From positions 1 to 21,811 of the IMG/VR virus record IMGVR_UViG_3300032665_000218: a DNA stretch of 21,811 nucleotides; one strand, 5' to 3'. Shown here piece by piece: positions 3,281-17,522 of this stretch (within the stretch, counting starts at the first letter, position 1; each line of letters starts with the position of its first letter). The DNA comes from a virus. Below the pieces are notes generated by a model. That model was given only the letters and a program-made list of their open reading frames with translations, was not told the DNA's origin and ran no database searches. The position numbers and the translations under genes are program-made.

Positions 3281-3283
3281 TAA

Positions 3284-3298: not shown

Positions 3299-4078
3299 AT
3301 GATTTACAATTTTAATGAGTATAAATTATTTGAATATTTGACACCAAGAGGTCTTGACCTGTATCATTATTTTAATCAAAGTATAGAGGATAAGAAAAGT
3401 TATTTACCTCATGTATATTATTACTTTTGGAAAAAATTTTTTAATGAAAAAGGTATTCAATATGATTCATCTGATTTAGAAGATTTTGAAATAACTGATA
3501 ATATACAAGAAAATAATCCTAATTTATATAAAGAGTTTTGTGAATGGTTATATGAAAAAATTATAAACCATACTTTAAATATTCATAGTGCAGATTATCC
3601 AGCATGGGCTTATTATGACTCTCCACAAATAGTTAAAAATACTTGGTTAGTTCATTTTACAGATAATGCGGATAGTATAGTTAAAAATGGATTTACTAAA
3701 GGAGTAAGTGAGATTGAAAAATTAGCTTTAACAACACACTTAGGAGAATTTGATAAAAAATATGGTGGGTATAATTTTTGTTATACTCTAAATGATTATA
3801 AATCATATGCTAACAATATTAATCAAGAATATAAATACGGAAATCAAGTAGTTATATTTAAGGCATCTGGACTTAGAGTTTATCATAAAAGGGATAAAGA
3901 ATATCAAACTATATTTTGGGGTAAAGAAGCTACTTGTGTCAATGCTATTGAGAATGAATATGGAGATTGGGTTATTAGGAGTAAGGTAGGTAAGAAATTA
4001 TATGAAAATGAGAAATTAGAAAAGGTAGTTGATTGGGTGGTTAATAACTATGATCAATATAGAAAAGTTTTGAACTAA
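3299..4078 (+). CDS. Putative capsid-packaged ADP-ribosyltransferase-like protein
   Basis: This 259-aa protein begins MIYNFNEYKLFE, a variant of the shared N-terminal tag with a potential L-F-E cleavage site at residues 10-12. Residues 117-132 (LVHFTDNADSIVKNGF) match the H-x-T...I...G[LF] start of ART-fold enzymes such as KptA/Tpt1 and DarT. LALTT (142-146), GYNFCYTL (157-164) and an EYQTIFW segment (201-207) follow in the order seen in related phage hypothetical proteins. Tagged ART proteins have a precedent in T4 Alt, which is packaged and injected to modify host proteins. The gene stands alone between the adhesin and a strong terminator, on the opposite strand to the genes beyond. The fold assignment is from motif recognition only, and the target is unknown. 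Confidence 0.5.
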   Translation: MIYNFNEYKLFEYLTPRGLDLYHYFNQSIEDKKSYLPHVYYYFWKKFFNEKGIQYDSSDLEDFEITDNIQENNPNLYKEFCEWLYEKIINHTLNIHSADYPAWAYYDSPQIVKNTWLVHFTDNADSIVKNGFTKGVSEIEKLALTTHLGEFDKKYGGYNFCYTLNDYKSYANNINQEYKYGNQVVIFKASGLRVYHKRDKEYQTIFWGKEATCVNAIENEYGDWVIRSKVGKKLYENEKLEKVVDWVVNNYDQYRKVLN

Positions 4079-4083
4079 AAAAA

Positions 4084-4108
4084 GCAACTCTTAAGAGTTG
4101 CTTTTTTT
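4084..4108. terminator. Bidirectional rho-independent terminator
   Basis: An 18-nt perfect palindrome (GCAACTCTTAAGAGTTGC, 4084-4101) is followed by seven T and preceded by a run of A that includes the end of the stop codon. It can end transcription of the 259-aa gene on the plus strand. It can also stop minus-strand transcripts that pass the 253-aa gene. Confidence 0.9.
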
Positions 4109-4170
4109 GTAATAACAATAAACAATAAAACTTATTACAAATATACGAAAAATATTTATAATTAAAAAAT

Positions 4171-4932
4171 TTAAATTATATTATCTAATAATTTTTCAGG
4201 TAAAATAAATCCATTACTTATATAACTAAAATTTAAGGAATCTTCTAAATCAATAATAACTAATTCACCATTTTTATTTAATCCATAATTATCTTGATTA
4301 GTATCACTAATAATTATGTTATTATTTTTACATAATGTATAAGATTTTACTAAATCATTATATATACTTAATAAATTTACATCTAATGTTTTTTTAAATT
4401 CATCTAAATATTTTCTTAAAATAGATATTTCTTTATAATCAAAACTTTCTAAATAAAGTCCCCATTTATCGTATATTATAATTTGTAAATCATATAATAT
4501 ATCACCTGTTCCTTTATAATTAAAATTTAATTTCCAATGACTATATAAACTAAGTAGTTTTTCTATATCTTTTGTTAATTTAGAAGAAATATTTATTTTT
4601 TCTTCTATAATATAATATATATCATTTATATTTTGGTTAAATATACTTTCAGGTAATTTTTTATAAAGATCAATAAACCAAGTATCTTTTCTTTTTTTAA
4701 TTTTACCTATTTCATATATTTTTGGTAAAATAGGTAAATTAATATTTTTTTGTTTTATACAATTAAGTATTTCATAAGAACTATCTTCTATAGATAAAAA
4801 TTTAATAATTTTATTATTATATTCAAATACTAATTTATAAGTTCCTTTATAAGAAGGATAAGTTAAAATGGTTTTTATTTCATTTTTTGTAAGTAAGTTT
4901 CTAAATGTTTCAAATAATTTTATATAATTCAT
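4171..4932 (-). CDS. Kinase-like protein with packaging-type N-terminus
   Basis: This 253-aa protein starts MNYIKLFETF, a short variant of the shared tag with possible cleavage after L6-F7-E8. The body has a protein-kinase-like layout. GTYKLVF (30-36) resembles a glycine-rich strand, KIIKF (41-45) could carry the ATP-binding lysine, and E54 lies in a helix-C-like segment. IIISDTNQDNYG (206-217) matches a catalytic loop D-x-x-x-x-N (D210, N215). LVIIDLED (224-231) matches the metal-binding DFG region (D228). It is closer to aminoglycoside-kinase-like or other atypical kinases than to eukaryotic Ser/Thr kinases. Its ATG overlaps the TGA of the 271-aa gene by four bases (ATGA), implying translational coupling. 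It might phosphorylate a host component after injection, but no substrate can be inferred and it could be a pseudokinase. Confidence 0.5.
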   Translation of the reverse strand: MNYIKLFETFRNLLTKNEIKTILTYPSYKGTYKLVFEYNNKIIKFLSIEDSSYEILNCIKQKNINLPILPKIYEIGKIKKRKDTWFIDLYKKLPESIFNQNINDIYYIIEEKINISSKLTKDIEKLLSLYSHWKLNFNYKGTGDILYDLQIIIYDKWGLYLESFDYKEISILRKYLDEFKKTLDVNLLSIYNDLVKSYTLCKNNNIIISDTNQDNYGLNKNGELVIIDLEDSLNFSYISNGFILPEKLLDNII

Positions 4933-5744
4933 TTATTTAATTTCTTTTTTAATCTATCTAATTCATATTGATTTAAATCAAATTCTATACTTTCATCACT
5001 ACCTATTCTAGACCTATAAGCAATACTGACATTACCTTTTTCTACTTGCTTTGTATAATATACAAGTTTTTGTTCATCTGTTAATGTATCTATTTGATCA
5101 TGTTTTAATTCTCCACCTTTTTCAATACATGCATTAATATAATAATTAGTATAATATATTCTATCTTCTTCAGGTTCAATCCAAGATAATTCTTTACTAC
5201 TTATAGGAGATTTATATTCAATACATTTATCCATATAAAACTTCTTAAATTTATCTGATAAAAATATGAAAGCTTTATCACTAAGATGTTGTTTCTTTTT
5301 AATATAATTAACTAAATACACATACATTTGTTTATCTGAAAATAATTTTAGAAAATCTAATTTAATATAACTAGATCTAGCATTTTTTGCACAACTATCT
5401 AAAAATAAATTTTTTTGATTTGGGGTTAAACTATCAATCTCATTTAGAGGTATGCCTAATCCTTTATCAATACAAATCTGAATATATTTATTTTTTATTA
5501 ATTTAGGACATAAGGAAAATTCATAATCTGTAAAAGGAAAATATTCAGTTCTATAACCATTTTTGGTTAAACCATGTGTGATACTTAGATCATCAAAGTC
5601 CGAAGTTTCAAAATAATAAAGTCTATTTTCAAAATATTTTAATCTTTCTTCTCTATTTAAATGGAGGATTTGATACTCTGTTTTCATAAATGAAGAATCA
5701 AATATTGTAGATTCATTAATGAATATTTTAAATTTTTTAATCAT
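4929..5744 (-). CDS. Tagged helical-repeat protein of unknown function
   Basis: This 271-aa protein begins MIKKFKIFINES, one of the clearest copies of the shared tag (F5-x-x-F8-I9-N10-E11, then S). After it come roughly 35-residue helical repeats built around [YF]-x-x-x-C-[IA]-x-K followed by a short linker and L-[TS]-x-x-[QK]-K. Examples are YIQICIDKG (~108), SLTPNQKNLFLDSC (~125), FYMDKCIEY (~188), YYINACIEKG (~216) and TLTDEQKLVYY (~232). Similar repeats occur in hypothetical proteins of large phages. No catalytic motif is visible, so a protein-binding role is the simplest guess. A TATATATA-containing stretch at about 5765-5775 may hold its promoter, just past the terminator of the upstream endonuclease gene. 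It is coupled to the downstream kinase-like gene by an ATGA overlap. Confidence 0.6.
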   Translation of the reverse strand: MIKKFKIFINESTIFDSSFMKTEYQILHLNREERLKYFENRLYYFETSDFDDLSITHGLTKNGYRTEYFPFTDYEFSLCPKLIKNKYIQICIDKGLGIPLNEIDSLTPNQKNLFLDSCAKNARSSYIKLDFLKLFSDKQMYVYLVNYIKKKQHLSDKAFIFLSDKFKKFYMDKCIEYKSPISSKELSWIEPEEDRIYYTNYYINACIEKGGELKHDQIDTLTDEQKLVYYTKQVEKGNVSIAYRSRIGSDESIEFDLNQYELDRLKKKLNK

Positions 5745-5773
5745 TTTTACAATTTTTTACTATACCTATATAT

Positions 5774-5810
5774 AAAAAAAGGTGATAGATTTTTATCTAT
5801 CACCTTTTTT
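5774..5810. terminator. Rho-independent terminator overlapping the endonuclease stop codon
   Basis: The stem GGTGATAGAT (5781-5790) and ATCTATCACC (5795-5804) is a perfect 10-bp hairpin with a TTTT loop. It has T6 on the plus-strand side and, read on the minus strand, a seven-base T run (5774-5780). The last codons of the homing endonuclease gene form one arm and its TAA uses the loop. It isolates that gene from the 271-aa gene. Confidence 0.9.
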
Positions 5811-7376
5811 AATATCTATTTCAAATAAAAAACTACCACAATCATATACTTTATTATATCCTAAACTTTCCATAATCTCAAATTCTGTTAAATTAGGATC
5901 ATAACCTTTTTTAATTAATTCAGATTTTCTCCAATTAAAACGTGAACTTCTTTTATTATTCACTACATAAAAATAATTTGGCTTAGTTACATTTTTTAAT
6001 TCAAATCCTAATTTTTCATATAAATTACCAATAGACCAAAATCTATCACAATAACTTATTATTTTTATTGGTTGATACTTTTTAATAAAATAATTCATTA
6101 ATTTAGAAGCACCACCTACAACATTAGTATTAATCAAATTACAATAACGTGTTAATTCATAAACATCTTCTTTATTTTTATTTCCAGTAGATATTCTTAA
6201 TTTGGAAAAAGTCATACAATTAACTAATTTATTATTAAAATAAAGACCTAATCTAATTAAATCATTACAATCTCCTTGAATATGATTATTTTCTAAAAAA
6301 TCTTTACTTATATTTTTATCAATTTCTTTAATAACACATTTTCTAGCCCATAATTTATTATGAATTTTTTTCAAAATGTTTAAAACACGAGATTTAATAA
6401 TTTCTTTTTTAAAAAGAAAATCATCCTCCCATATTTGTATCAAATGTATATTTTTCTCAATACATTTATTCATTTTTCTTAAATGATATTCATCATCTTT
6501 GAATTTATCACTATGCCAAAATATACCATTATATTCAAACCCAATATTTAATTCAGGTAAAAATATATCAATTTCATAAGGATAAATTATTTTTCTTGAA
6601 TTAAAAATAATTTCCCCTTCATAGTTGTTTTTAATAAATTCAAATAACTCTTTTTGAGATTCTGAACAAGAATTAATTTTATTACATTCAGTACAAATAG
6701 TTATATTAGCTTTTATTCTATCGTTTAACATATTTTTATGGATTATAAATATATGATCATTATGATAAAATTCATAAATAGATGTATCTAATATCGAATT
6801 GAGTATTAAATTATAATTTTTAACTTTTTCCATAATATATTTTTTAAGATTTTCTTTTTGAATATTATTCAATTCTTTAGATTTTAAAATCATTCTATCA
6901 CTTAAAATTTTACGAACTTTATCTGTCTGAGTTACATATTCTTTGCCAAATTTTTCTAAATTAGTTATTTTAATTTTTTCTTTAATAGAATCTAATTTAG
7001 ATATATTATCAACTCCATATTTTTCTAAAATATTAGATATGTAAATTTTCTGAATATCTTTATTTTGCATTGGATTTTCACACCCAAATTTTTTTATATT
7101 AGTTTTAATTCTTTTTTGTTTTATATCATCACTATTAGCTTGACATTTTTTAGAACAAAAAACTAACCAACCATCTACACCATTTTTAAATTTAACATTA
7201 TTCCCACAATAACATTTAGGTACTGCTGATAAATTATTAAAATAATAATATACTTTTTGTATCCAAGGTATATCATGAGATATACCTAAAATAGAAAAGT
7301 GAAGATTAGGATAATTTTTCTTTATCCAATCTTCACTTTTTCCCTTTATTTTTTCTCTTAAAATATTTAATTCCAT
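5793..7376 (-). CDS. Vsr-like (EDxHD-type) homing endonuclease with zinc finger and GNAT-like tail
   Basis: This is a 527-aa multidomain mobile endonuclease. Residues 55-78 carry a CxC...CxxxC zinc-finger pattern. Residues ~90-155 hold three short repeats (KKFGCENPMQ, EKYGVDNISK, EKFGKEYVTQ) typical of the DNA-binding arms of phage homing endonucleases. A CxxC (228-231) precedes the nuclease core. IYPYEIDIFLPELNIGFEYNG (from 264), then W287-H288 and IQIWEDD (313-319), fits the Vsr/PD-(D/E)XK-related EDxHD fold. Residues ~345-525 (NNHIQGDC, TRYCNLINTNVVGGASKLM, YEKLGFEL) form the GNAT-like C-terminal domain often fused in this family. It lies just downstream of the tail tube gene and ends in its own terminator, as expected of an intergenic homing element. 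No intron is evident. Recognition of the family is firm; the cleavage site is unknown. Confidence 0.8.
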   Translation of the reverse strand: MELNILREKIKGKSEDWIKKNYPNLHFSILGISHDIPWIQKVYYYFNNLSAVPKCYCGNNVKFKNGVDGWLVFCSKKCQANSDDIKQKRIKTNIKKFGCENPMQNKDIQKIYISNILEKYGVDNISKLDSIKEKIKITNLEKFGKEYVTQTDKVRKILSDRMILKSKELNNIQKENLKKYIMEKVKNYNLILNSILDTSIYEFYHNDHIFIIHKNMLNDRIKANITICTECNKINSCSESQKELFEFIKNNYEGEIIFNSRKIIYPYEIDIFLPELNIGFEYNGIFWHSDKFKDDEYHLRKMNKCIEKNIHLIQIWEDDFLFKKEIIKSRVLNILKKIHNKLWARKCVIKEIDKNISKDFLENNHIQGDCNDLIRLGLYFNNKLVNCMTFSKLRISTGNKNKEDVYELTRYCNLINTNVVGGASKLMNYFIKKYQPIKIISYCDRFWSIGNLYEKLGFELKNVTKPNYFYVVNNKRSSRFNWRKSELIKKGYDPNLTEFEIMESLGYNKVYDCGSFLFEIDIKKGDR

Positions 7377-7411
7377 ATTATTATATATAAAAATATAATA
7401 ATTGTTTTATT

Positions 7412-8023
7412 TTATCCATATACATTCGGATTATCAATAACATAGTTACCATCAATATATTCATCAATCCAAAAGTCAGCTACAAATTTAGCAGTTACAT
7501 CCCAGATATCAGCTGTTCCCCAATCTAAAGCAATACTTTCAACTCCATAAATTTGTGCATTTTGAAAAGTAACTCTTCTTAATACATAACCTTTTCTATC
7601 ATGTTGATTAACTATAACAGTTCCGATTGTATCTGATTTGTAATGTAAAGTACCGTTTTGAGAGTTCCATTGTAAATCGTACCAAGATTTTAAAGTATTC
7701 CAAACATCCATAGCGCCTTTGTTACTTACGTTAACTTGAAATTTAATATCAAATTCCTTTGTAGTAGTAGAAGGCATTGTTACAAATGCTCTTGTAGAAT
7801 ATTTGTATCTTTGTTCTTTACGGTCAATATCTATAGTTAAATCTAAAGTAACTGAAGTTGCTTCTTGTAATAAAAGAGCTACATCTCTTCCTTGAGCTTG
7901 TAATATAATTGGTAATACAAAGCTAATCTCAAAGAGGTTTTTATATACTGGTTCTTGAGGTAACGTACCTGGTCCTGCTGGATCATCTAAAACTGGTAAT
8001 TGTGTATAATGTGGTAATGGCAT
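7412..8023 (-). CDS. 19: Tail tube protein, T4 gp19-like
   Basis: This 203-aa protein should polymerise into the inner tube of a contractile tail. Its start, PVYKNLFEISFVLP (25-38), and its final part, SIALDWGTADIWDVTAKFVADFW (from ~163), are typical of the gp19/T4-like tail tube family, where the second segment forms the last beta strands. At 203 residues it is somewhat longer than T4 gp19 (163), with extra residues at the proline-rich N-terminus (PLPHYTQLP). By eye its codon use is less AT-extreme than its neighbours, as expected of a highly expressed, conserved virion gene. No sheath gene is next to it in this window. Instead it lies between the tagged 403-aa gene and a homing endonuclease. 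A TTTTAATATATAAT element lies 17 bp upstream of the ATG. Confidence 0.85.
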   Translation of the reverse strand: MPLPHYTQLPVLDDPAGPGTLPQEPVYKNLFEISFVLPIILQAQGRDVALLLQEATSVTLDLTIDIDRKEQRYKYSTRAFVTMPSTTTKEFDIKFQVNVSNKGAMDVWNTLKSWYDLQWNSQNGTLHYKSDTIGTVIVNQHDRKGYVLRRVTFQNAQIYGVESIALDWGTADIWDVTAKFVADFWIDEYIDGNYVIDNPNVYG

Positions 8024-8040
8024 ACAATTAATTATTTTTT

Positions 8041-8054
8041 ATTATATATTAAAA
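8041..8054 (-). promoter_or_regulatory. Spaced TTTTAATATATAAT element upstream of the tail tube gene
   Basis: On the minus strand this reads TTTTAATATATAAT and ends 17 nt before the ATG at 8023, leaving room for a short leader. Its spacing resembles that of the 190-aa gene and the giant structural gene. It is probably a phage late promoter core. Confidence 0.5.
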
Positions 8055-8077
8055 TATTTTATCTTCCAATCAAAAAA

Positions 8078-8125
8078 CATTTGTAATACATGGTATATAT
8101 TAGTTTTATAAACTGATTTTTTTCT
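8078..8125 (-). repeat. 48-bp cassette-border repeat, copy 1
   Basis: This matches 9351-9398 at 45 of 48 positions, including CATTTGTAATACATGGTATA on the plus strand. It covers the last codons and the 3' flank of the 403-aa gene, while copy 2 lies just after the 134-aa gene. It is therefore a shared 3' border of two otherwise unrelated tagged genes. Confidence 0.85.
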
Positions 8126-9317
8126 TTTCTAGAATATTAAAACTTGATTCATCTACTTCATTAAATTCATCATTATAATATCTACCTGAATCTAAATATT
8201 GAATACTAAAAAATAGCGAATTATCTTCATTTTTACTTATATCTTTAATAACTCCTATTTTTTTATTTTTTAGTAAATAAACAATAAAAGTTATTTTTCC
8301 ATTTTGGATATTTTTTATATCTTCATCTGTTATTTTATAACTTTTATATTTATTAATTAATTTATTTAGATTATCTAAATAATAAGACGAATCAACAAGT
8401 TTTGTTTTCCATTCTTTATACCAATTTCCTAATTTATTTTCTAATTCAGAATCTATTTTAAATTTATTTTTAGTACATGTTTTAGAATTTAAAAACTTTT
8501 TAACTATATTATCAATATCACCTGTATAATTTTTAGAAAATACAATAATATCATGATTACAAATAATACTATTAACACTATTATCTACAAGAATTTTTTC
8601 CCATATTTTTCTTATTGATGAGGATGAACTTGTACTAGAAGTTAAGTAACCTACTTTATGTATAAATGCTTTGTAAATAAAAAAAGATATTCCATTACCT
8701 CTTAAAGTAGTTGGTATTCCACTTAGTTTATACGAATACCAATTCCTAACTTGTCTTCCTGGAAAATGAACTCTATTTAGATGATCAGTTTCTAATGTAA
8801 GATACATATATTTATCTGCTTTATTAAATTCCGGATTTTTTTCAATAAGGTCATTTATTTCCTTAGTAAAAAGTATTTGATATATTTCAAAATTATCTCC
8901 ATAGCCCCTGTTTAACTCTCCTGTTTGTTTATACATTGGGGAACTTTTATCTACTTTTTTAAAATCTATATCAAATTCTTTTTTATCTTTTTTAATTGGA
9001 GTTATATTTAGATATTTATTTTTAATAAAATTTTCAATCCACTTTTTTAATCCTTCTTTATTAATAGAATTATTAATATTATTTCTAAATTTATTTAATA
9101 AGTCTTTATCGTTATTTAATAATTCTTTAATTTTAATAAAATTTTTATCACCCACTTTTTCTGGATTTTGAATTTGATTTAAAGTTATTTTATCATCTAT
9201 AATAGTTTTTAATTTATTTTCTAATTCTAAATTAGTTTCATAATCATTAAGTAAATAAGAACCTTTTAAATCTTCCTTTTTCAATTCTAAGATAAAGTCT
9301 AAATATTTTTTTATCAT
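8106..9317 (-). CDS. Tagged protein with a GNAT-like acetyltransferase segment
   Basis: This 403-aa protein begins MIKKYLDFILE, a near-perfect match to the T4 capsid-targeting peptide, with a potential cut after I9-L10-E11. Residues ~10-130 are charged and mostly helical. Residues ~168-265 look like a GNAT fold: YMYLTLETDHLNRVHF (170-185), then TLRGNGISFFIYKAF (204-218) as the acetyl-CoA-binding [RQ]-x-x-G-x-[GA]-like loop. The stretch GYLTSSTSSSSSIRKIWEKI (223-242) resembles the 'gy.L.S...S.....IW..L' strand-helix of GNAT-like phage proteins. The C-terminal ~60 residues (VYLLKNKKIGVIKDI, SIQYLDSGRYYNDEF) look like a small beta barrel. The final codons lie in the 48-bp border repeat and the first codons in the 69-bp leader repeat. 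I infer a packaged enzyme; the acetyltransferase call is from pattern recognition only. Confidence 0.55.
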   Translation of the reverse strand: MIKKYLDFILELKKEDLKGSYLLNDYETNLELENKLKTIIDDKITLNQIQNPEKVGDKNFIKIKELLNNDKDLLNKFRNNINNSINKEGLKKWIENFIKNKYLNITPIKKDKKEFDIDFKKVDKSSPMYKQTGELNRGYGDNFEIYQILFTKEINDLIEKNPEFNKADKYMYLTLETDHLNRVHFPGRQVRNWYSYKLSGIPTTLRGNGISFFIYKAFIHKVGYLTSSTSSSSSIRKIWEKILVDNSVNSIICNHDIIVFSKNYTGDIDNIVKKFLNSKTCTKNKFKIDSELENKLGNWYKEWKTKLVDSSYYLDNLNKLINKYKSYKITDEDIKNIQNGKITFIVYLLKNKKIGVIKDISKNEDNSLFFSIQYLDSGRYYNDEFNEVDESSFNILEKKKISL

Positions 9318-9353
9318 AATTTATATATTAAAACTATTAAATATAATTTTCAT
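9285..9353 (-). repeat. 69-bp leader-plus-tag repeat, copy A
   Basis: This differs from 9777-9845 at only two positions. It spans the first ~11 codons of the 403-aa gene (the MIKKYLDFILE tag) and 36 bp upstream, including the TTTAATATATAAATT element. Both the regulatory leader and the tag have therefore been duplicated as one unit. Confidence 0.9.
9318..9332 (-). promoter_or_regulatory. TTTAATATATAAATT start-abutting element
   Basis: Read on the minus strand, this exact 15-mer is joined directly to the ATG of the 403-aa gene. It is identical to the sequences before the 259-aa and 134-aa genes. No Shine-Dalgarno sequence is present. Confidence 0.5.
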
Positions 9354-9398
9354 TTGTAATACATGGTATATATTAGATTTATAAATTGAATTTTTTCT
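9351..9398 (-). repeat. 48-bp cassette-border repeat, copy 2
   Basis: This is the partner of 8078-8125, with three mismatches. It starts 6 bp after the stop of the 134-aa gene and meets the upstream edge of the 69-bp leader repeat of the 403-aa gene, overlapping it by three bases. It is thus the junction between two tandem gene cassettes. Confidence 0.85.
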
Positions 9399-9404
9399 AA
9401 TTTA

Positions 9405-9809
9405 TTATTTAAACATTTTTTTATAAATACTAGGAGCTTTTTTTAGATCTAATATTTTAGCTTTAATATTTTTAACCTCATTATCAATAGCCTTTTTTAA
9501 TCTATGATGCCCATCTATAATCATACCATAAGTACCATCTAAATTTTTACATATGATTATAGGATATTTAAGATCTGATTTTTGTGCCCTTTCTAAAGTT
9601 TTTTTATCTTTTTTATCTAAGTGAATACATTTATCTTTAATATCTTCTACCTTAATATCAACTATTGGTTCATCTTTTAAAAATTCTTGAATCATATGGA
9701 TAGTTATAGTTTTTTCTTTACCATTTATATCCATTGTCCAACTTGTTTCATTGTAATTTTTATCAACTTCATTATCTTCTAAGATAAATTCTAAATATTT
9801 TTTAATCAT
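9405..9809 (-). CDS. Tagged ParB/sulfiredoxin-like domain protein
   Basis: This 134-aa protein starts MIKKYLEFILED, the closest copy here to the T4 capsid-targeting peptide, with possible cleavage after I9-L10-E11. The body carries a ParB/Srx-like core: a YPIIICKNLDGTYGMIIDG strand pair from residue 82, then DGHHRLKKAI (99-108) with the family's G-[HN]-H-R motif, and VKNIKAKILDL (112-122). ParB-like domains of this kind in phages may be NTPases or nucleases, so a host-DNA or nucleotide role after injection is possible. The protein is short, with the domain filling residues ~45-122. Its 5' end lies in the 69-bp leader repeat shared with the 403-aa gene and its 3' flank in the 48-bp border repeat. 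It diverges from the 419-aa gene across ~59 bp. Confidence 0.65.
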   Translation of the reverse strand: MIKKYLEFILEDNEVDKNYNETSWTMDINGKEKTITIHMIQEFLKDEPIVDIKVEDIKDKCIHLDKKDKKTLERAQKSDLKYPIIICKNLDGTYGMIIDGHHRLKKAIDNEVKNIKAKILDLKKAPSIYKKMFK

Positions 9810-9845
9810 AATTTATATATTAAAACTATTAAATATAATTTTCAT
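9777..9845 (-). repeat. 69-bp leader-plus-tag repeat, copy B
   Basis: This is the copy belonging to the 134-aa gene. It includes the codons of the MIKKYLEFILE tag, the ATG and 36 bp upstream. It matches copy A (9285-9353) at 67 of 69 positions. Confidence 0.9.
9810..9824 (-). promoter_or_regulatory. TTTAATATATAAATT start-abutting element
   Basis: On the minus strand this 15-mer ends at the base before the ATG of the 134-aa gene (9809). It is part of the duplicated leader. The divergent 419-aa gene has only a looser version (TATATTTATAA) before its ATG at 9869. Confidence 0.5.
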
Positions 9846-9868
9846 ATAAATAAAAAATATATTTATAA

Positions 9869-11128
9869 ATGGAAAAAAATCAAAATGAAGAAAACCTAAA
9901 TTTAGAAGAATTAATAAAGAATATAGTAGGTAATCCTAAATTTTTCGAACAAAATAATGTCTCTAACGAATTTTTATTAGAAATTATAGATGATATTTTA
10001 GTACTAGACCAATACTATTTATTACACAGTATAACACCTGTTTATACTTTTGAATTAGATACCGTTAAGGCTTTAATAGCTAAAGGACATCTTGAATTAG
10101 AAGAATTACAATACTTAACTTTAAATACTTATTTTAATTTTGATAAAGACTTTATTACTGAATATCAAGATCATCTTAATTGGAATAAAATTATTTTAAG
10201 AAAAGCAAATGTAACTGGTTTAGTTAGTTTTAATAAATTAGAAAGACAAAAAATAGAAGAATTAAATCTTTGGGATTTAGCTAGCTCTTTTCAATTAGAG
10301 AAAAAGTTTATTAAAAGAAATAGACAATTTTTAAATTGGGAAATTATTAGCATAACTAATGACTTCAAACAAGAAGAATTATCTGACTATCCAGAATTAA
10401 TTAACTACAAAGCAGATGGTATTAAAGAACCAGTAACTATTATTGAAACACCTTCTTTAAATGAAGATGGATTCTTAGCATTTGATAATGTTAAACCTAT
10501 TGATAATGAAGTAACTGAAAATTTTCATGATTTAAGAAGAGAATTATTACAAAGACAAAAAGATCCAAATGCTGATACCAAAGAGATAATAGAAAAAATG
10601 GCAGCTATTAGAAAAGAAAAATTTAAGGATATTACACCTAATCAACTAAAATCTGAGATAAAAGCAGAAGATATACCCGAAACTCCGAATATGGTTAAAT
10701 TTGAAGATGATGTTTATGAAATAACTAAACCAAAAACTACAATAAAAGAAGAAATTATTGAATATTCTAAAATACTTAGTCATAATATATTAAGTCATAC
10801 TTTTTCTCAAAAGTTCACAATACCTGTTGGAAATACAGATCCTGAGTTAGCTAAACAAGCTTTAGCAGAATTAATTAATAATTGTCAACAAGATGTTAAA
10901 TTTGATGAAGATAAAGGAGAATTAATTTTAGATGGTAAGACACAAATTCCTTATCAAAAAGATATTTGGTTCCCTTCACCAAATGAAGAAACTTCAAAGG
11001 TAGAGTTAATAACAGATACTCCAACAACTCCATTAACGGATGTTTATGTACCAGTTAAAGAAGAAAAGAAAACATCTACAATTGGTAAATTTTTTAACAA
11101 AATAAAAAACATATTTAATGGCAAATAA
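9869..11128 (+). CDS. Phage protein with helical repeats and a possible portal-like (gp20) segment
   Basis: This 419-aa protein has no tag. Residues ~1-170 are helical and contain two copies of an F-I-x-x-[YR]...L-N-W-x-x-I repeat (FITEYQDHLNWNKII near 95 and FIKRNRQFLNWEIIS near 148), a type seen in hypothetical proteins of large phages. Residues ~200-300 are charged, with a likely coiled coil around EIIEKMAAIRKEKF. Residues ~316-380 (FTIPVGNTDPELAKQALAEL, then VKFDEDKGELILDG and DIWFPSPN) recall, in order and spacing, the stretch of T4-type portal proteins that reads I-D-V-G-N-x-P...A...Y-D-x-x-T-G-E...W-L-P. The rest of a portal is missing. The C-terminus is basic (KFFNKIKNIFNGK). The gene overlaps gp47 by 11 bp, so the two are co-expressed. 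Function is unknown; the portal resemblance is from memory and unverified. Confidence 0.6.
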   Translation: MEKNQNEENLNLEELIKNIVGNPKFFEQNNVSNEFLLEIIDDILVLDQYYLLHSITPVYTFELDTVKALIAKGHLELEELQYLTLNTYFNFDKDFITEYQDHLNWNKIILRKANVTGLVSFNKLERQKIEELNLWDLASSFQLEKKFIKRNRQFLNWEIISITNDFKQEELSDYPELINYKADGIKEPVTIIETPSLNEDGFLAFDNVKPIDNEVTENFHDLRRELLQRQKDPNADTKEIIEKMAAIRKEKFKDITPNQLKSEIKAEDIPETPNMVKFEDDVYEITKPKTTIKEEIIEYSKILSHNILSHTFSQKFTIPVGNTDPELAKQALAELINNCQQDVKFDEDKGELILDGKTQIPYQKDIWFPSPNEETSKVELITDTPTTPLTDVYVPVKEEKKTSTIGKFFNKIKNIFNGK

Positions 11129-12240: not shown

Positions 12241-12241
12241 T

Positions 12242-12504: not shown

Positions 12505-12867
12505 ATGGAACATTTTAAAGTTATTAAAAAAAATAAAAGTGAAGTAGCTTTTATAATAAAAGATAATGAATGGTATGTATACGATGCTGGCTATAAAGAA
12601 ATTTTTTATAACCTTGATCCTATTAAAGTACCTAATTACGTAAATCCTGAAGAAAGTTATACTAATTATAAAATAGAAGATAAAAAGAATTATCTTTTAC
12701 AATTATTCAAATCAATTGATTGGAATAATTGCGAATATATAATACATACGGATAAAGATCCTTTTTATTCAGATATATCTGTATATTTATTTGCTGAAAT
12801 AGTTTATAAACAATATACAATATATAAACAAAGGGAAGAAACTATAAACCTAATTTTAAAAAATTAA
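12505..12867 (+). CDS. Hypothetical protein downstream of duplicated gp47 tail
   Basis: This is a 120-aa protein of unknown function (MEHFKVIKKNKSEVAFIIKD...). I chose the ATG at 12505 rather than the in-frame ATG at 12475 because the latter lies within the 73-bp repeat of the gp47 3' end. The A-rich sequence before 12505 mirrors that before the small ORF at 12242. The sequence starts with a likely beta hairpin (VAFIIKDNEWYVYDAGYKEIF), and NCEYIIHTDKDPFYSD (~75-90) is the most distinctive stretch. There is no tag, signal peptide or transmembrane segment. It is the last gene of the plus-strand run and meets the 189-aa gene at a shared terminator. Confidence 0.6.
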   Translation: MEHFKVIKKNKSEVAFIIKDNEWYVYDAGYKEIFYNLDPIKVPNYVNPEESYTNYKIEDKKNYLLQLFKSIDWNNCEYIIHTDKDPFYSDISVYLFAEIVYKQYTIYKQREETINLILKN

Positions 12868-12880
12868 AAAGAAATAAAAA

Positions 12881-12906
12881 AGCAAGGATTATCTTCCTTG
12901 CTTTTT
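12881..12906. terminator. Bidirectional terminator between convergent genes
   Basis: The stem AGCAAGGA (12881-12888) and TCCTTGCT (12895-12902) has a six-base loop. A-rich sequence precedes it and a short T run follows. It serves the plus-strand 120-aa gene. For the minus strand it includes the last codons and TAA of the 189-aa gene, as with the terminator at 5774-5810. Confidence 0.85.
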
Positions 12907-13458
12907 CCATGTTATGGTGATTTTATCTTTATTAAAATCAATTATTTTTTGAACTTTTACATCAAAAGATTCATATTGAATTTCTTCTATATCATAATTA
13001 TCAAAGTTATTTAATATTAAAGATATAATTAATTTTTGATATTCAATTGGTAATATTTCTATTATCTCAAAAGAATATGGTAATGTTTTTTTAGATTCTA
13101 AAATATTTTTTTCTATACATATTTTACATTCTTCTGGGTACTCTAACAAAATATCTTCTACTATAATAGGACCATGAAAAAAAACTGCTTTTTCTTCAAC
13201 TACCATTTTTTTATATATTTCTTTAAGTCTTTCTCTTAAATCAAGATACAATGAATCTTCTAACCATTCACCTTGTTTTAATCCTAAATCAGCTGCTTCA
13301 ATAAATTCTTCTTCATTTATATCTTCATCAAAATCTATACCTCCTAATCCATTTTTATCTATATAAGGTCTTTTTGGACCTTCCCAATCCATATTTTGTA
13401 GTTCTCCATTTTTGTCAATGTGAGCTTCAAATTGATTAAAGTTTTTTAAATTTTTCAT
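12889..13458 (-). CDS. Tagged acidic protein of unknown function
   Basis: This 189-aa protein begins MKNLKNFNQFEAHIDKNG, which fits the shared tag's F-x-x-F-E spacing, but the residue two before E11 is Q rather than L or I. It is thus the weakest tag member. Residues ~20-60 are strongly acidic (GIDFDEDINEEEFIEAADLG). The middle is helical (LRERLKEIYKKMVVEEKAVFF). Residues ~100-170 resemble the 'Yp..c..cie..i......P..y..li' helical patterns of other phage accessory proteins. The end (ITITWKKQGR) is a beta strand. There are no catalytic motifs. It shares a 22-bp palindromic start region with the divergent 234-aa gene, so the two are probably expressed together. Confidence 0.6.
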   Translation of the reverse strand: MKNLKNFNQFEAHIDKNGELQNMDWEGPKRPYIDKNGLGGIDFDEDINEEEFIEAADLGLKQGEWLEDSLYLDLRERLKEIYKKMVVEEKAVFFHGPIIVEDILLEYPEECKICIEKNILESKKTLPYSFEIIEILPIEYQKLIISLILNNFDNYDIEEIQYESFDVKVQKIIDFNKDKITITWKKQGR

Positions 13459-13484
13459 AATTAATATATATATATTAATTATGA
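13455..13484. promoter_or_regulatory. 30-bp perfect palindrome with both divergent start codons
   Basis: The region between the two start codons (13459-13480) reads AATTAATATAT followed by its exact reverse complement. The symmetry extends outward through both ATG codons by one more base on each side. Each half matches the TTAATATATA start-abutting element, so it probably acts as a bidirectional promoter or initiation site. There is no space for a normal leader or Shine-Dalgarno site. Confidence 0.7.
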
Positions 13485-14185
13485 TTATTAAAAAATTTAA
13501 TGACTTTATTTTAAATGAAAATTTAAAAACTTATCCTTTTTTAACAGTATCTAAATATTTAGATAGTTTAGGATTAGAAGAAAGATATGATTACTATAAT
13601 ATGTTTGGGGCAGATAAAATTTATATAACATTGCGTCCTACAAATAAACATTTATATAAACAAATAATTACTAAATTAGAAAATTTTTATGGATGGTATT
13701 TAGCATTTGTTAATAAAAAAGATTTTACAGATGATAAAGATGTTAATTTTTATAAAGATTTTATTGAAGAGTATATAGAAGGTAATGAAGAAAAAGATAA
13801 TCAAGATGAGCCTATAGGTAGATTATGTTTTGAACCTAAATATGATAGAATTATAGATTATAATGATATTCCTGATAAGATATATCATATAACAAATAGT
13901 AGATTTTATTTTAAAATAATGAAAAAAGGACTTATACCAAAACACTTAGATAGAATTAGTTATCATCCTGATAGAATCTTTTTTGGAACTAGTGAGGATA
14001 TTTGTATGGAATTAGCAAGACACTCAGATTTTGAATTAAGACAACCTATTATACTAACAATTGATGCTAAAGGGTTAAAAGAAAAAGGTTTTAAATTTTA
14101 TGAAGATTCTAATCTTCATGATGGAGGTATTTATGTAATCGAAAATATACATCCTAAATATATTATAGAGTATAAAAAAATTTAA
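13481..14185 (+). CDS. Putative capsid-packaged ADP-ribosyltransferase-like protein
   Basis: This 234-aa protein begins MIIKKFNDFILNENL, a good copy of the shared tag with possible cleavage after L11-N12-E13. Residues ~1-115 show no recognisable domain. The C-terminal half looks like an ART fold of the KptA/Tpt1-DarT type: KIYHIT (133-138), FKIMKKGLIPK (144-154), HPDRIFFGT (162-170), PIILTID (189-195), then FYEDSNLHDGGIYVIENI (206-223) as the last strands. An H in the first strand and the I...GL.P helix are seen; no clear second-strand catalytic glutamate can be assigned. It differs from the 259-aa protein, so two separate ART-like payloads may be carried. The gene diverges from the 189-aa gene and converges, with a 5-bp gap, on the 86-aa gene. 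Confidence 0.55.
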   Translation: MIIKKFNDFILNENLKTYPFLTVSKYLDSLGLEERYDYYNMFGADKIYITLRPTNKHLYKQIITKLENFYGWYLAFVNKKDFTDDKDVNFYKDFIEEYIEGNEEKDNQDEPIGRLCFEPKYDRIIDYNDIPDKIYHITNSRFYFKIMKKGLIPKHLDRISYHPDRIFFGTSEDICMELARHSDFELRQPIILTIDAKGLKEKGFKFYEDSNLHDGGIYVIENIHPKYIIEYKKI

Positions 14186-14190
14186 TATTA

Positions 14191-14451
14191 TTAATATTTA
14201 ATAATCTTTAATACTAACTCACCATCTCCTTTAATAAGTCTATGGTAAACTTCTGCTTTAATAAAGATTGGTTTATCAAAACAAATTGGTAATTCATTAT
14301 CTCTTTGAAATTGCCAATTTGTTTCTCCAACACATTCTATTAAACGATCTTCCCGATCTCTATGCCATTCTAAATCTTCTACATCTATATCTTTATTAAA
14401 AGTTCTGATATAGTAATTATCTTTTATTTCTTCACTAAATGGAAATTTCAT
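14191..14451 (-). CDS. Conserved phage cupin-like small protein
   Basis: This 86-aa protein matches a small family widespread in tailed phages, recognised by LEWHRDREDR (27-36), ETNWQFQRDNELP (43-55) and EVYHRLIKGDGELVLKI (67-83). The H-x-D...H-R spacing and the predicted all-beta pattern suggest a small cupin barrel that could bind a metal, but its function is not known to me. It carries no packaging tag, unlike its upstream neighbour. Its ATG overlaps the TGA of the metalloprotease gene by four bases (ATGA), so it is translationally coupled to it. Confidence 0.7.
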   Translation of the reverse strand: MKFPFSEEIKDNYYIRTFNKDIDVEDLEWHRDREDRLIECVGETNWQFQRDNELPICFDKPIFIKAEVYHRLIKGDGELVLKIIKY

Positions 14452-15431
14452 CTTAATAATTTATATATTTTACTTTCTCTAAGTAATTTTTCATCAAAAA
14501 TTACTTTTATTTCACCATTTTCAAAAGTTCTATATGCTTTATTATATAATAAAGTATCTAGTATAACTTCATCAATTATAATTTCTAATTTATTTTGAAA
14601 GTAATATCCTTTTTTCTTAAACAAAATTTTATATGATTTTAAAATATCTAAACAATCTTTATTAGTACTAGGAATTTTATTTATATTAAACTTTTTAATA
14701 ATTTTTTTATTTATTTCTGAATTATATTCTATTAAAAAATTTTTTAATAAATTAAAATCTATTTTTTTATTATTAAAATCAAAATTTAATAATTCTTCAC
14801 TATATTTCCATGCTTTAGATTTTTTTAGCTCTAAAAATAAGTCATCTTTTGAATATGTTTTTGTTTTATTTAATTCCATTAAATAAGTATAAGTTTGTGC
14901 AACTCTTGCATTTATTTCTTGATTAAAAGATAAATATAATAAATATATAAAATAGTTTAAAAATTCATTATTATATTTATTTCTTATATTATATAATATA
15001 TTAGCATTATACCATTGAATATCATAATTATTTTTATTTATCTTAGTTATTCTATTATATATCTCATATATATGAAGTAATTCATGAGTTATTACTACTT
15101 TTAAATTTGATAAATCTAAATTAGTTATTAAATCTATAATTGGGTTTTCTAATTCTTTACCATTAAATTTTCCAAATTGTGAAGTAGCATATATATCTTT
15201 TCTATTATTATCTATAGTTAGATTAATTCTAAGATTCTTTATTATAAATTTATCATAAGAAAAAGAAAAAAGATTAATATTTTTTCCATTTTCTATAAAA
15301 TCTATAATAGAATTATAGACTTCATCTATTACAGATTTTAAATCTTCAGGGATGCCTCTTCCTTCATTTATAGGTTCTAATAAAGGATCATAAGTAAAAT
15401 AATTTTCATATGATGTTATATATTTATTCAT
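14448..15431 (-). CDS. Putative capsid-packaged zinc metalloprotease (HExxH)
   Basis: This 327-aa protein contains THELLHIYE with HExxH at 116-120 inside a hydrophobic helix, the zinc-binding signature of gluzincin-type peptidases. A second helix, FNQEINARVAQTY (169-181), offers E172 as a third ligand in an E-x-x-A-R arrangement. The N-terminus MNKYITSYENYF... continues to PLLEPINEGRG. I21-N22-E23 followed by G24 is a textbook prohead-protease site, although further in than in the other tagged proteins. There is no signal peptide or membrane segment, so the enzyme would act in the cytoplasm. A TTAAATATATAAATA element abuts its ATG. It is coupled to the 86-aa gene by an ATGA overlap. It could cleave a host protein after injection; the substrate is unknown. 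Metal binding is likely, given the intact motif. Confidence 0.65.
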   Translation of the reverse strand: MNKYITSYENYFTYDPLLEPINEGRGIPEDLKSVIDEVYNSIIDFIENGKNINLFSFSYDKFIIKNLRINLTIDNNRKDIYATSQFGKFNGKELENPIIDLITNLDLSNLKVVITHELLHIYEIYNRITKINKNNYDIQWYNANILYNIRNKYNNEFLNYFIYLLYLSFNQEINARVAQTYTYLMELNKTKTYSKDDLFLELKKSKAWKYSEELLNFDFNNKKIDFNLLKNFLIEYNSEINKKIIKKFNINKIPSTNKDCLDILKSYKILFKKKGYYFQNKLEIIIDEVILDTLLYNKAYRTFENGEIKVIFDEKLLRESKIYKLLR

Positions 15432-15446
15432 TATTTATATATTTAA
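15432..15446 (-). promoter_or_regulatory. TTAAATATATAAATA start-abutting element
   Basis: Read on the minus strand, this element ends immediately before the ATG of the metalloprotease gene at 15431. It lies in the 17-bp gap after the upstream GIY-YIG gene. It is a close variant of the 15-mer before the 259-, 403- and 134-aa genes. Confidence 0.45.
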
Positions 15447-15448
15447 AT

Positions 15449-16888
15449 TTATACCTCATAACATTTCCATCCTTTATAAGTTTTTTCAGTATTTTTTATT
15501 TTTACTAAATTACCAGCATATAAATCTTTATCTTTACAATAATTTTCTAAATTATTTATTATTATTTCTTCCCCACTTGGATTTATTAATTTCCAATTTT
15601 TAGATCTTTTTATATTAGTTTCAATTCTTTTTTCTGATCTCAACTTTCTATTTTTAGATTTTTCATGTTCCGCATTAAGGTCTAATTTATTAATTAAATT
15701 TAAATAATATTCACCTATTTTAGGATTTTTATTTATAATAAGTCCAGTATCATGATAATTATACTTAATATTTAATTCTTCTAATAAATAATCGCCTGAA
15801 TTATAATCATTAAATATATTAATAATATCTTCTTCACTCAATAAATTTTTTTTCTTTCTTAAATCATATATTGTTTTTAAATCAATATATAATTGATTAT
15901 ATTTTCTTAATTGATATTTACATTCAATAATAAAATTATAGTCTTTTTCTTTTAATGAATAAAATTCTATTATTTCCTTATCTTCTTTATTGTTTAAATA
16001 TTTATGTTTAAATATTTCTCTTATAGTTTCCTCCAAAATTATATCTTTAATAATTTTTTTCCTTTCTTTAGGTAAAGTTTCTTTTTTTATTACAGACTTT
16101 CTACCTAATTCATAATTAAAGTTAATACCTAATTCTTCTTTAATATCTTTATAATTATTTTCATTTTTTATTAAATGAGTTATTGATGATTTACTAATCT
16201 CAAGTATATTAGCAATATCAGAAATTGATTTTTTCTCAATTTCGTAAAGTTCATATATTTTTTTTATATTCTCAGAATTTAAAATTTTAGATAATTTATT
16301 TTCTTCAATATTTAAATTATATTTTTCTTTAACATATTTATATTTGTCGGTTCTAGTAATAATACTAGAAACAACCTCTTTTTTTATTTTTAATTTTTCT
16401 GAAATCTCTTTGTAAGAGAAATTTTCATTAAATAATTTAATTATATTAATTATTTCATCATCAGATAAAGTTCTTAATCTTTCAAACAATTTGATTTTAT
16501 TTTCTAATGTATGTTTTACTCCTAAACAATTTCCAGCAGTTGGACTTCTATTATAGCCAAATTTTGGGCTTGATGATTTATAGAGATCAATATAATATTG
16601 TTCTCTTTCTATACATTTAACAGGGTCAACTAATTCAATAATCTCAAATTTATAATTTTCAAAATTTTTATTATTTTTATTAAAAGAATTTTGTAAATAA
16701 ACTGAATGGTGTTTATTATTTAATAAAAGTCTTATATGAGCACTAAATCTTCTTATTATTTTATTAGCAGAGCTACCTATATATACTTTATCATTTAGTA
16801 AATTGGTTATTTTATAAATTCCTGATTTATCTAAATTTTTGTATTGTTCTAATGGTAATAATTTTTTTATAATTTCTATATTTTTCAT
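15449..16888 (-). CDS. GIY-YIG homing endonuclease
   Basis: The likely product is 479 aa from the ATG at 16888, not the longer frame from 16963. That longer frame would overlap the 190-aa gene, whereas a TTTTAATATATAATATT element abuts the ATG at 16888. The nuclease domain has GIY (23-25) and YIG (36-38), R47 and H51 in RRFSAH, a glutamate in IEREQYYIDLY (~90-100) and FGYNRSPTAG. Residues ~130-260 carry two helix-turn-helix-like units (FSYKEISEKLKIKKEVVSSI and KSISDIANILEISKSSITHL) that probably read DNA. The C-terminus (WKLINPSGEEIIINNLENYC, then KGWKCYEV) is the NUMOD-like module common in phage homing enzymes. It sits as a freestanding insert between two tagged genes. No intron halves are visible around it. 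Confidence 0.85.
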   Translation of the reverse strand: MKNIEIIKKLLPLEQYKNLDKSGIYKITNLLNDKVYIGSSANKIIRRFSAHIRLLLNNKHHSVYLQNSFNKNNKNFENYKFEIIELVDPVKCIEREQYYIDLYKSSSPKFGYNRSPTAGNCLGVKHTLENKIKLFERLRTLSDDEIINIIKLFNENFSYKEISEKLKIKKEVVSSIITRTDKYKYVKEKYNLNIEENKLSKILNSENIKKIYELYEIEKKSISDIANILEISKSSITHLIKNENNYKDIKEELGINFNYELGRKSVIKKETLPKERKKIIKDIILEETIREIFKHKYLNNKEDKEIIEFYSLKEKDYNFIIECKYQLRKYNQLYIDLKTIYDLRKKKNLLSEEDIINIFNDYNSGDYLLEELNIKYNYHDTGLIINKNPKIGEYYLNLINKLDLNAEHEKSKNRKLRSEKRIETNIKRSKNWKLINPSGEEIIINNLENYCKDKDLYAGNLVKIKNTEKTYKGWKCYEV

Positions 16889-16905
16889 AATATTATATAT
16901 TAAAA
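16889..16905 (-). promoter_or_regulatory. TTTTAATATATAATATT start-abutting element
   Basis: On the minus strand this directly precedes the ATG at 16888 and supports the shorter start of the GIY-YIG gene. It shares the TTAATATATAA core with the other start-abutting elements. The remaining gap up to the 190-aa gene (16906-16949) shows nothing else. Confidence 0.45.
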
Positions 16906-16949
16906 TATTACTTTCCCTTAAAACATTTTTTATTAAATCATAAAAAAGA

Positions 16950-17522
16950 TTACCAATATCCACCAGTCTTACCAGAACCTGATAAATTTTTATATCTATT
17001 TAATCTACAAGACCAGTAGCCTGGTTTTGTTCGATCTTTTTTTGCTGCTGAGCTACAATTATGGCGTTTTGAAAAATTGGCTCTAGCCTTGGCATTACCT
17101 GTTCTAGCTCTTAATCCACCTTTTTTATCACCAAAACTAACTTTAATTACTTTTCCTGATTTAGGATTTTTAACATAAACTTGGTATTTTTTTGGACCAG
17201 AACTTCTTGTAGGATGTCCTAATTTAACTTTTTTACCATGATATTCTGCTTCATTTAATTCTTCAAAAGGTAAATCTAATGGAACTAAATAACCTTCATA
17301 ATAATCAAAGTGTCCTAAATCAGTTTCTTCAAAAAGAACTTTATCTTCGACACAAATGTTTATGGCTTTTTTATCAAAAAGTTCTCTAGATTCTTTTAGT
17401 AATTCATAGAATGAATCTGAACCTGATCTAAATATATTTTCAAAAATAGAAATATCTTTATCTATATGGTATTGTAGATTTTCAGATACTTTTACTTGTT
17501 CAAAATTAATAATGTATTTCAT
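16950..17522 (-). CDS. Tagged basic protein with conserved phage Cys/His C-terminal domain
   Basis: This 190-aa protein starts MKYIINFEQVKVSEN, a looser tag with possible cleavage after V12-S13-E14. A second, better prohead-protease site, L89-N90-E91 followed by A92, lies just before the conserved domain. That domain reads YHGKKVKLGHPTR (94-106), KYQVYVKNPKSGKVIKVSFG (112-131), then R-A-R repeats, KRHNC (152-156) and PGYWSCR (167-173). I recognise this C-terminal domain from many T4-like and marine phages, where the LNEAE-Y-x-G-[RK]-K-V stretch is also kept, but its function is not established. C156 and C172 with H154 could bind metal, and the high lysine/arginine content suggests DNA binding inside the capsid. 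The two sites suggest removal of the first ~91 residues. A TTTAATATATAAAA element lies 20 bp upstream of the ATG. Confidence 0.65.
   Translation of the reverse strand: MKYIINFEQVKVSENLQYHIDKDISIFENIFRSGSDSFYELLKESRELFDKKAINICVEDKVLFEETDLGHFDYYEGYLVPLDLPFEELNEAEYHGKKVKLGHPTRSSGPKKYQVYVKNPKSGKVIKVSFGDKKGGLRARTGNAKARANFSKRHNCSSAAKKDRTKPGYWSCRLNRYKNLSGSGKTGGYW

What the first reader, a model, noticed from the sequence alone, without database searches (positions are those of the whole stretch)
3299..17522. Nine unrelated proteins share a T4-like capsid-targeting N-terminus: a putative injected effector set
The 259-, 253-, 271-, 403-, 134-, 189-, 234-, 327- and 190-aa proteins all begin with variants of M-x-K-[YF]-x-x-F-[IL]-x-E. 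The best copies (MIKKYLEFILE, MIKKYLDFILE, MIKKFKIFINE) align residue for residue with the T4 internal protein start MKTYQEFIAE. In T4 this peptide sends IPI-III and Alt into the prohead and gp21 cuts after [LI]-x-E. Here potential cuts are L10-F-E12, L6-F-E8, I9-N-E11, I9-L-E11 (twice), L11-N-E13, I21-N-E23 and V12-S-E14; the 189-aa protein fits less well. The bodies beyond the peptide are unrelated. The tag is missing from the adhesin, tail tube, gp47, both homing endonucleases and the cupin-like gene. I infer that about half the genes here encode capsid-packaged proteins.
Basis: partly seen in the sequence, partly recalled or inferred. Interest (0 to 1): 0.88.

Follow-up and report, generated by a model that had tools for sequence, protein, structure and literature searches.

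The report
Cleavable capsid-packaging tag in huge phages
Over a hundred otherwise unrelated proteins of these huge bacterial viruses start with the same short peptide, which copies a repeat in the virus's own head-building scaffold and looks like a shipping label that loads proteins into the virus head, so one virus may deliver a large protein kit into the cell it infects.

Summary
The shared N-terminus is real. A profile trained on two related huge phages (642 and 635 kb), never on the window, finds 5 of 19 window genes at p<0.001 (0.02 expected) and 8 at p<0.01 (0.19 expected). The ninth (259 aa) fails the profile but keeps the predicted cut site. The tag is genome-wide: 134 of 928 and 111 of 908 genes in those relatives, on mostly unrelated bodies, with background codon usage. 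Its signature [YF]xxF[IL]xE is that of the T4 capsid-targeting sequence; the same pattern in T4 hits ipII, ipIII and 61.1 only. The new evidence is in the head genes. The prohead protease (S77/gp21-type) of this group is fused to a scaffold-like tail of 10-12 repeats, YSEY[IL]AENLDKNI(A/S), with the same Y-x-x-Y-[IL]-x-E core. In one small family, 18 of 18 orthologues keep Glu at the tag/body boundary although tag length and type vary. Another small protein fuses the tag to a copy of the mature capsid-protein N-terminus. Cargo includes 2H phosphoesterases (Acb1-like), T4-type RNA ligase and Tpt1-like enzymes. Most likely: a scaffold-mimicking, cleavable capsid-packaging tag. Packaging is well supported; injection and effector function are inferred. 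No virion was examined.

The parts
3299..4078 (+). 259-aa protein; tag-like residues 1-12 (MIYNFNEYKLFE|YLTPR), tag not significant alone; ART-like by eye only
   Evidence: PWM p=0.11; E12 aligns with INE|Y of a 43% identical homologue that bears the MKLNEQ..MMG tag; exact TTTAATATATAAATT abuts its ATG
4171..4932 (-). 253-aa protein, tag form B (MNYIKLFETF); weak kinase-like catalytic-loop similarity
   Evidence: PWM p=0.0044; PDB phmmer CDK5 E=0.025; fold model unusable
4929..5744 (-). 271-aa protein, tag form A (MIKKFKIFINE|S)
   Evidence: PWM p=8e-5
8106..9317 (-). 403-aa protein, tag form A (MIKKYLDFILE|L)
   Evidence: PWM p=1.6e-4; orthologue in G002 88% identical with tag kept
9405..9809 (-). 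134-aa ParB-like protein, tag form A (MIKKYLEFILE|D)
   Evidence: PWM p=8e-5; ParB-like hits; orthologue G013_88 carries form B tag MRYLKTYENFE
12889..13458 (-). 189-aa protein, tag form B (MKNLKNFNQFE|AH)
   Evidence: PWM p=2.5e-4; G002 orthologue MKNLKNFKQFNE|AH
13481..14185 (+). 234-aa Tpt1/KptA-like (ART superfamily) protein, tag form A (MIIKKFNDFILNE|N)
   Evidence: PWM p=1.6e-4; PF01885 E=1.4e-4; phrog_5470 E=4.6e-6; PDB tRNA 2'-phosphotransferase E=0.009
14448..15431 (-). 327-aa HELLH-motif protein (possible metallopeptidase), weak form B tag ending PINE|GRG
   Evidence: PWM p=0.0062; orthologues MKYIKPYSNFSINE|AVGLAEA and MGIINFKNFQLNE|KVGLAEP
16950..17522 (-). 190-aa protein, weak form B tag (MKYIINFEQVKVSE|NLQYHID)
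   Evidence: PWM p=0.0067; orthologue G006_114 MIHLKDFNSYENISE|NLKYHID; phrog_7595
3284..3298 (+). candidate late promoter TTTAATATATAAATT directly before the 259-aa ATG
9318..9332 (-). same 15-mer directly before the 403-aa ATG
9810..9824 (-). same 15-mer directly before the 134-aa ATG
7412..8023 (-). tail tube-type virion protein, untagged control with the same TTTTAATATATAA element upstream

Best explanation
The N-terminal peptide is a cleavable prohead-core targeting tag, working like the T4 capsid-targeting sequence. In this phage group the prohead protease (S77/gp21-type) is fused to a scaffold-like tail of 10-12 14-residue repeats, YSEY[IL]AENLDKNI. The tag reproduces the aromatic-x-x-aromatic-aliphatic-x-Glu face of one repeat. 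Tagged proteins are made late, dock on or co-assemble with the repeat core through that face, and are enclosed when the shell forms. The protease then cuts after the Glu in both scaffold and tags, clearing the core and freeing the cargo inside the head for delivery with the DNA. Shown by sequence: the tag, its sharp boundary at Glu, the protease, the repeats and their shared core, the MCP-junction match, and co-occurrence of tag and repeats. Inferred: docking, cleavage, packaging and injection.
For: Independent profile test in the window (binomial P about 7e-12). Genome-wide tag on 134 and 111 genes in 127 and 105 body clusters. Codon usage in the tag equals background, so selection is on protein. 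Among 418 orthologue pairs, 38 are tagged in both, 25 in one; identity is high to about 6 residues past the first aromatic, then drops to 0.1-0.3. 18 of 18 members of a KKDKFP family keep Glu at the boundary with 8-13-residue tags of both forms. W01 n168 joins the tag to a copy of the mature MCP N-terminus (FNE|DATANASTAGMGG against INE|NAYANASNVAGMG). Protease with GE[FL][ND]HP and VSSR motifs shared with T4 gp21. 76 of 76 complete proteases carry 10-12 repeats; no other protein in four proteomes has more than 3. Tag and repeats co-occur; PTm1 and Lak-A1 lack both, LR756500 has 2 repeats and no hits. T4 control hits ipII and ipIII. T4 literature: residues 4 and 7 target, 8 and 10 govern processing (PMC9026906). 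AT-rich promoter-like element enriched on tagged genes.
Against: No virion proteomics exists for this group in what I could search. The tagged share (12-14% of genes) is far above anything known for T4. Many tags end in F-x-E or E-E/E-S rather than clean [LI]-x-E. The protease domain scores below Pfam's cut-off. The TAATATA element also lies upstream of 16% of untagged genes. The repeat/tag match is a 7-residue pattern; docking was not modelled. PAU and G014 use different tags, so similarity to the T4 CTS could be partly convergent.
Confidence: 0.82

Rival explanations
1. The peptide is a localisation signal inside the infected cell (replication compartment, membrane or phage nucleus), not a virion-packaging tag.
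For: It is very common (12-14% of genes), includes proteins with transmembrane-like stretches after the tag, and no virion data exist.
Against: It matches a T4 capsid-targeting signature by spacing (PMC9026906), the repeat of the protease-fused scaffold and the MCP cleavage junction. The fixed Glu at the boundary implies removal. Phages lacking the repeat scaffold lack this tag.
Confidence: 0.1
2. The tagged proteins are structural or core components of a very complex head (as in phiKZ-like phages) that stay in the virion, not injected effectors.
For: Some tagged genes are small and linked to head genes (KKDKFP family, n168), and PAU's tagged genes cluster round its protease.
Against: Cargo includes enzymes with intracellular substrates: T4-type RNA ligase, 2H/Acb1-like phosphoesterase, NUDIX, DHH, SET, PPK2 and a Tpt1-like protein in the window. 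Both classes may coexist.
Confidence: 0.25
3. The shared start is a nucleic-acid feature (translation enhancer or promoter reaching into the gene) or common descent of one gene family.
For: Tagged genes share an AT-rich upstream element, and a divergent DILxDLxDxGF sub-family exists (17 of 134).
Against: Synonymous codons in the tag follow genome background. Bodies fall in 127 and 105 clusters, and form A and form B tags exchange on one body.
Confidence: 0.03
4. The resemblance is chance in AT-rich, Lys/Ile/Phe/Tyr-rich proteins.
For: GC is 22.6% and single weak cases (259 aa, 253 aa) could be chance.
Against: Shuffles and internal-Met nulls give 0.02-0.5 hits where 3-20 are seen; orthologues keep the tag.
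Confidence: 0.01

Closest known systems
T4 internal proteins and their capsid-targeting sequence (IPI-III, gp21 processing)
   Same: N-terminal peptide of about 10 residues with [YF]xxF[IL]xE spacing; unrelated bodies; gp21-type protease; T4 cargo is injected anti-restriction protein (PMC9026906, PMC12373910)
   Different: Over 100 cargo genes per genome instead of three; two tag forms, the main one with the aromatic at residue 7; protease fused to a repeat scaffold whose unit carries the tag's core; cargo mostly untested, partly enzyme-like
phiKZ/SPN3US ejection proteins
   Same: Large phages that load many head proteins with cleaved propeptides
   Different: Different cleavage motif, S/A-x-E in phiKZ (PMC9026906); no short uniform tag is described there in the passages read
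Polyvalent proteins of phages and conjugative elements (PMC5512222)
   Same: Proposed delivery of many enzyme types with DNA; ART-PolyVal domain on a tagged protein of the related contig G014
   Different: Those are multidomain proteins; here mostly small proteins with a removable tag
Sphingomonas phage PAU tagged gene set (not described in the papers searched)
   Same: 19 genes starting MKx[LI]xx[LI][YF][ED] against 0.03 in shuffles, many round the S77 protease
   Different: Different tag consensus (MKTLxxLYEAKLNE); phage in culture

Membership tests
T4-type capsid-targeting sequence | N-terminal peptide with aromatic at the two targeting residues (T4 4 and 7), aliphatic at 8, Glu at 10 | tested here: met
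   Strict regex and independent profile; T4 positive control; met strongly for 5 of 9 window proteins, moderately for 3, not for the 259-aa protein
T4-type capsid-targeting sequence | Unrelated cargo bodies | tested here: met
T4-type capsid-targeting sequence | gp21/S77 prohead protease in the same phage | tested here: met
   Present beside a gp23-type MCP in the near-identical contig G002 and in W01, W02, G006, G010, G011; sub-threshold to Pfam but with shared catalytic-type motifs; the window itself is a fragment without it
T4-type capsid-targeting sequence | Cleavage after Glu of the tag | not testable with these tools
   Indirect: invariant boundary Glu, MCP junction match, identity drop after the tag
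T4-type capsid-targeting sequence | Proteins present inside virions and injected | not testable with these tools
   No virion data
Tpt1/KptA RNA 2'-phosphotransferase (234-aa protein) | Domain similarity | tested here: inconclusive
   PF01885 22.4 bits, below cut-off 26; phrog_5470 E=4.6e-6; PDB Tpt1 E=0.009
ADP-ribosyltransferase (259-aa protein) | Domain similarity or fold | tested here: inconclusive
   No ART family hit in Pfam; neighbours of its homologue are ART-PolyVal; fold model of low confidence

The most novel reading that the evidence does not exclude
Huge phages of this clade run a general protein-export route through the virion: a short peptide mimicking one repeat of a protease-fused scaffold sends more than a hundred different proteins per phage into the head, and the protease clears scaffold and tags at the same motif, so that a broad counter-defence and takeover kit reaches the next host. 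Other lineages (PAU, G014) have evolved their own tags.
Probability: 0.6. Interest if true: 0.92.

Novelty: new variant of a known kind. Interest (0 to 1): 0.82.

Why it matters
The tag lets packaged proteins be predicted from sequence alone, for viruses no one has grown: about 130 candidates in one genome, most without any known domain. It offers a concrete, testable answer to how such a tag is recognised (mimicry of a scaffold repeat). The likely cargo (2H/Acb1-like, RNA ligase, Tpt1-like, NUDIX, DHH) suggests first-minute counter-defence and RNA repair. Tag, scaffold repeat and protease form a small set that can be tested with purified parts, and the analogous PAU tag in a cultured phage.

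Tried and rejected
Peptidase_S77 search of the window itself: nothing, because it is a 21.8-kb fragment. DNA-level explanation: rejected by codon usage. One-family descent: rejected, with the caveat that 17 of 134 W01 proteins share a DILxDLxDxGF segment. Viral-contig search for relatives of the 253-aa protein: none. Fold models of the 259- and 253-aa proteins had mean pLDDT 43 and 38 and were not searched further. PDB look-ups for these two were uninformative or weak. Idea that the G014 scaffold would repeat its own MKLNEQ tag: not seen by eye in its sequence. PADLOC on tagged proteins: three hits only. A published description of a genome-wide tag in huge phages or of a repeat scaffold: not found in the literature searches made in an open-access library, which is not proof of absence.
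Full report
What the window is. The 21,811-base window is a fragmentary IMG/VR virus record, 22.6% GC. It has no megablast relative among 50,697 phage records. Its gp47 leads to longer contigs: G002 (82.8 kb, 98% identical at gp47), G006 (143.8 kb), G007 (122 kb), G004. Its gp47 and tail tube lead to the metagenomic huge-phage genomes LR756502 (W01, 642 kb) and LR745206 (W02, 635 kb), and the tail tube more distantly to cultured phages PAU, PTm1, pT24 and MaF61.

Is the motif real? Taking the T4 spacing as an a-priori regex ([YF]xxF[ILVM]xE, aromatic at residue 3-7), the window has 3 hits in 19 genes against 0.04 in shuffled N-termini; W01 has 20 in 928 (0.41 expected) and W02 18 in 908 (0.46); PAU, PTm1 and MaF61 have none. 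A profile trained on W01/W02 and scored against sequences following internal methionines gives the window p-values listed in the observation check. Counts in W01/W02 are partly circular because the profile was trained there; the window, G002, G004 and G013 are independent and show 5/19, 8/86, 10/87 and 16/114 genes at p<0.001 (about 0.02-0.11 expected). Two forms appear: A, M-[IK]-x-K-[KR]-[YF]-x-x-F-[IV]-x-E, and B, MK[HY][LI]KK[YF]xxF...

Protein or DNA? Synonymous codons within the tag match the genome's usage, so selection acts on the peptide. Bodies without the first 22 residues form 127 clusters from 134 tagged W01 proteins and 105 from 111 in W02; about 17 and 13 of these share a divergent DILxDLxDxGF segment, so the number of true families is somewhat lower.

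Is the tag a module with a fixed end? Of 418 reciprocal best pairs between W01 and W02, 38 are tagged in both, 25 in one (some from misplaced starts), 355 in neither (Fisher P 2.5e-32). Identity is 0.4-0.8 through the tag and falls to 0.1-0.3 just after the Glu, although bodies average 51%. One small family beginning KKDKFPN(I/L) carries tags of 8-13 residues of both forms, and 18 of 18 keep Glu at the boundary (three other pattern matches there are unrelated sequence). The 134-aa window protein (form A) has a form B orthologue in G013; 327-, 190- and 189-aa orthologues keep the E boundary. The 259-aa protein's homologue in a 321-kb contig (G014) has a different tag, MKLNEQLNKMKSMMGLQTINE, yet the Glu lines up with E12.

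Link to the head. The near-identical contig G002 and the huge relatives encode a gp23-type major capsid protein beside a protease with T4 gp21's GE[LF][ND]HP and VSSR[GA] motifs; PF03420 matches are significant per genome but below the curated cut-off. This protease continues into a tail with 9-13 copies of a 14-residue repeat, consensus Y-S-E-Y-[IL]-A-E-N-L-D-K-N-I-[AS]. It is the only protein in four proteomes with more than 3 copies of [YF]xx[YF][LIVM]xE. In 76 complete homologues from IMG/VR the count is always 10-12, and 304 contigs encode the protease. The repeat core and the tag core are the same pattern. The MCP prodomain ends in xINE, and W01 n168 and its W02 counterpart join a tag ending FNE (or IEN) to a copy of the mature MCP N-terminus, as if tag and MCP prodomain were interchangeable before the same cut.

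Co-occurrence. Phages with the repeat scaffold (W01, W02, G002, G006, G010, G011, LR756504, LR756501) have the tag. Lak-A1 and PTm1, with no repeats, and LR756500, with two, give no pattern hits or background levels. T4 and other gp21 proteins lack the fused repeats. In T4 the equivalent DNA pattern finds exactly ipII, ipIII and 61.1. PAU has its own tag, MKx[LI]xx[LI][YF][ED], on 19 genes (0.03 in shuffles), many around its S77 protease.

Expression. TAATATA within 60 bases upstream marks 65/134 tagged against 125/794 untagged genes in W01, and 49/111 against 131/797 in W02. In the window the identical 15-mer TTTAATATATAAATT abuts the ATG of the 259-, 403- and 134-aa genes, and similar elements precede the tail tube, the 1400-aa adhesin and the 190-aa gene but not gp47. 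In G002 the MCP, portal and adhesin have it. I read it as a late-promoter-like element; this is inference.

Cargo. Tagged proteins of W01 and W02 match 2'-5' RNA ligase superfamily/Acb1 (Acb1 above its cut-off only in W01), T4-type RNA ligase, NUDIX and Sa_NUDIX, DHH, SET, PPK2, poly(A) polymerase head, methyltransferases and M15 peptidase; most match nothing. An untagged sample includes RNase H, RecA, DNA methylases and glycosyltransferases. In the window: a Tpt1/KptA-like protein (234 aa), a ParB-like protein (134 aa), a HELLH protein (327 aa), a weak kinase-like protein (253 aa). RNA ligase plus a Tpt1-like enzyme would fit tRNA repair, but this is a guess from annotation.

Comparison with T4. 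T4 CTS residues 4 and 7 govern targeting and 8 and 10 processing (PMC9026906), and IPs are injected inhibitors of type IV restriction enzymes sharing only the leader (PMC12373910). The window's best tags match at all four positions with identical spacing. Membership in the sense of proven packaging and cutting could not be tested. The scale, the second tag form and the repeat scaffold are differences, hence a new variant of a known kind.

Verdict. Capsid targeting is the best explanation (0.82). Delivery of the enzymes into the next host is likely but unproven (about 0.6).

Noticed in passing
T4 NC_000866 18966-19130 (L192): T4 gene 61.1 (54 aa, hypothetical) starts MKTFKEFIKE, a good capsid-targeting sequence; it may be an unrecognised internal protein.
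   Followed up: no
Sphingomonas phage PAU NC_019521, mainly 100-121 kb: Nineteen genes share a different N-terminus (MKTLxxLYEAKLNE-like), many of them round the prohead protease.
   Followed up: partly
G014 (L197; 320.9-kb contig) about 215860-232187: About eight genes, five in tandem, share MKLNEQ(L/I)xxMKxMMGL-type starts; cargo includes ART-PolyVal domains.
   Followed up: partly
W01 genes n123, n573, n788, n838 (56658, 395896, 544849, 580926): The tag is followed at once by a hydrophobic, signal- or lipobox-like stretch, as if cutting would expose an export signal.
   Followed up: no
window 9869-11128: 419-aa ORF contains about 60-100 aa homologous to the T4-like portal, while a full portal exists elsewhere in G002 (35222-36955).
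   Followed up: no
window 15449-16963: GIY-YIG-type endonuclease between tagged genes; in G002 only a 54-aa remnant is left at this place (75194-75358).
   Followed up: no
G002 76641-77354: An extra tagged gene (MIKKYYQFIIEGFNTYPF, GTG start) beside the 234-aa Tpt1-like gene, absent from the window: turnover of cargo between near-identical phages.
   Followed up: no
G004 97-10684: Tandem array of about twelve paralogues starting MKYLLESSKFNQIDQICQQYGI.
   Followed up: no
G002 22544-23934: Several short ORFs, one with the SLDFASLYP motif of family B DNA polymerase, suggesting a fragmented polymerase gene.
   Followed up: no
G014 183551-185353: Prohead protease ORF appears interrupted by an intein-like insertion.
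   Followed up: no
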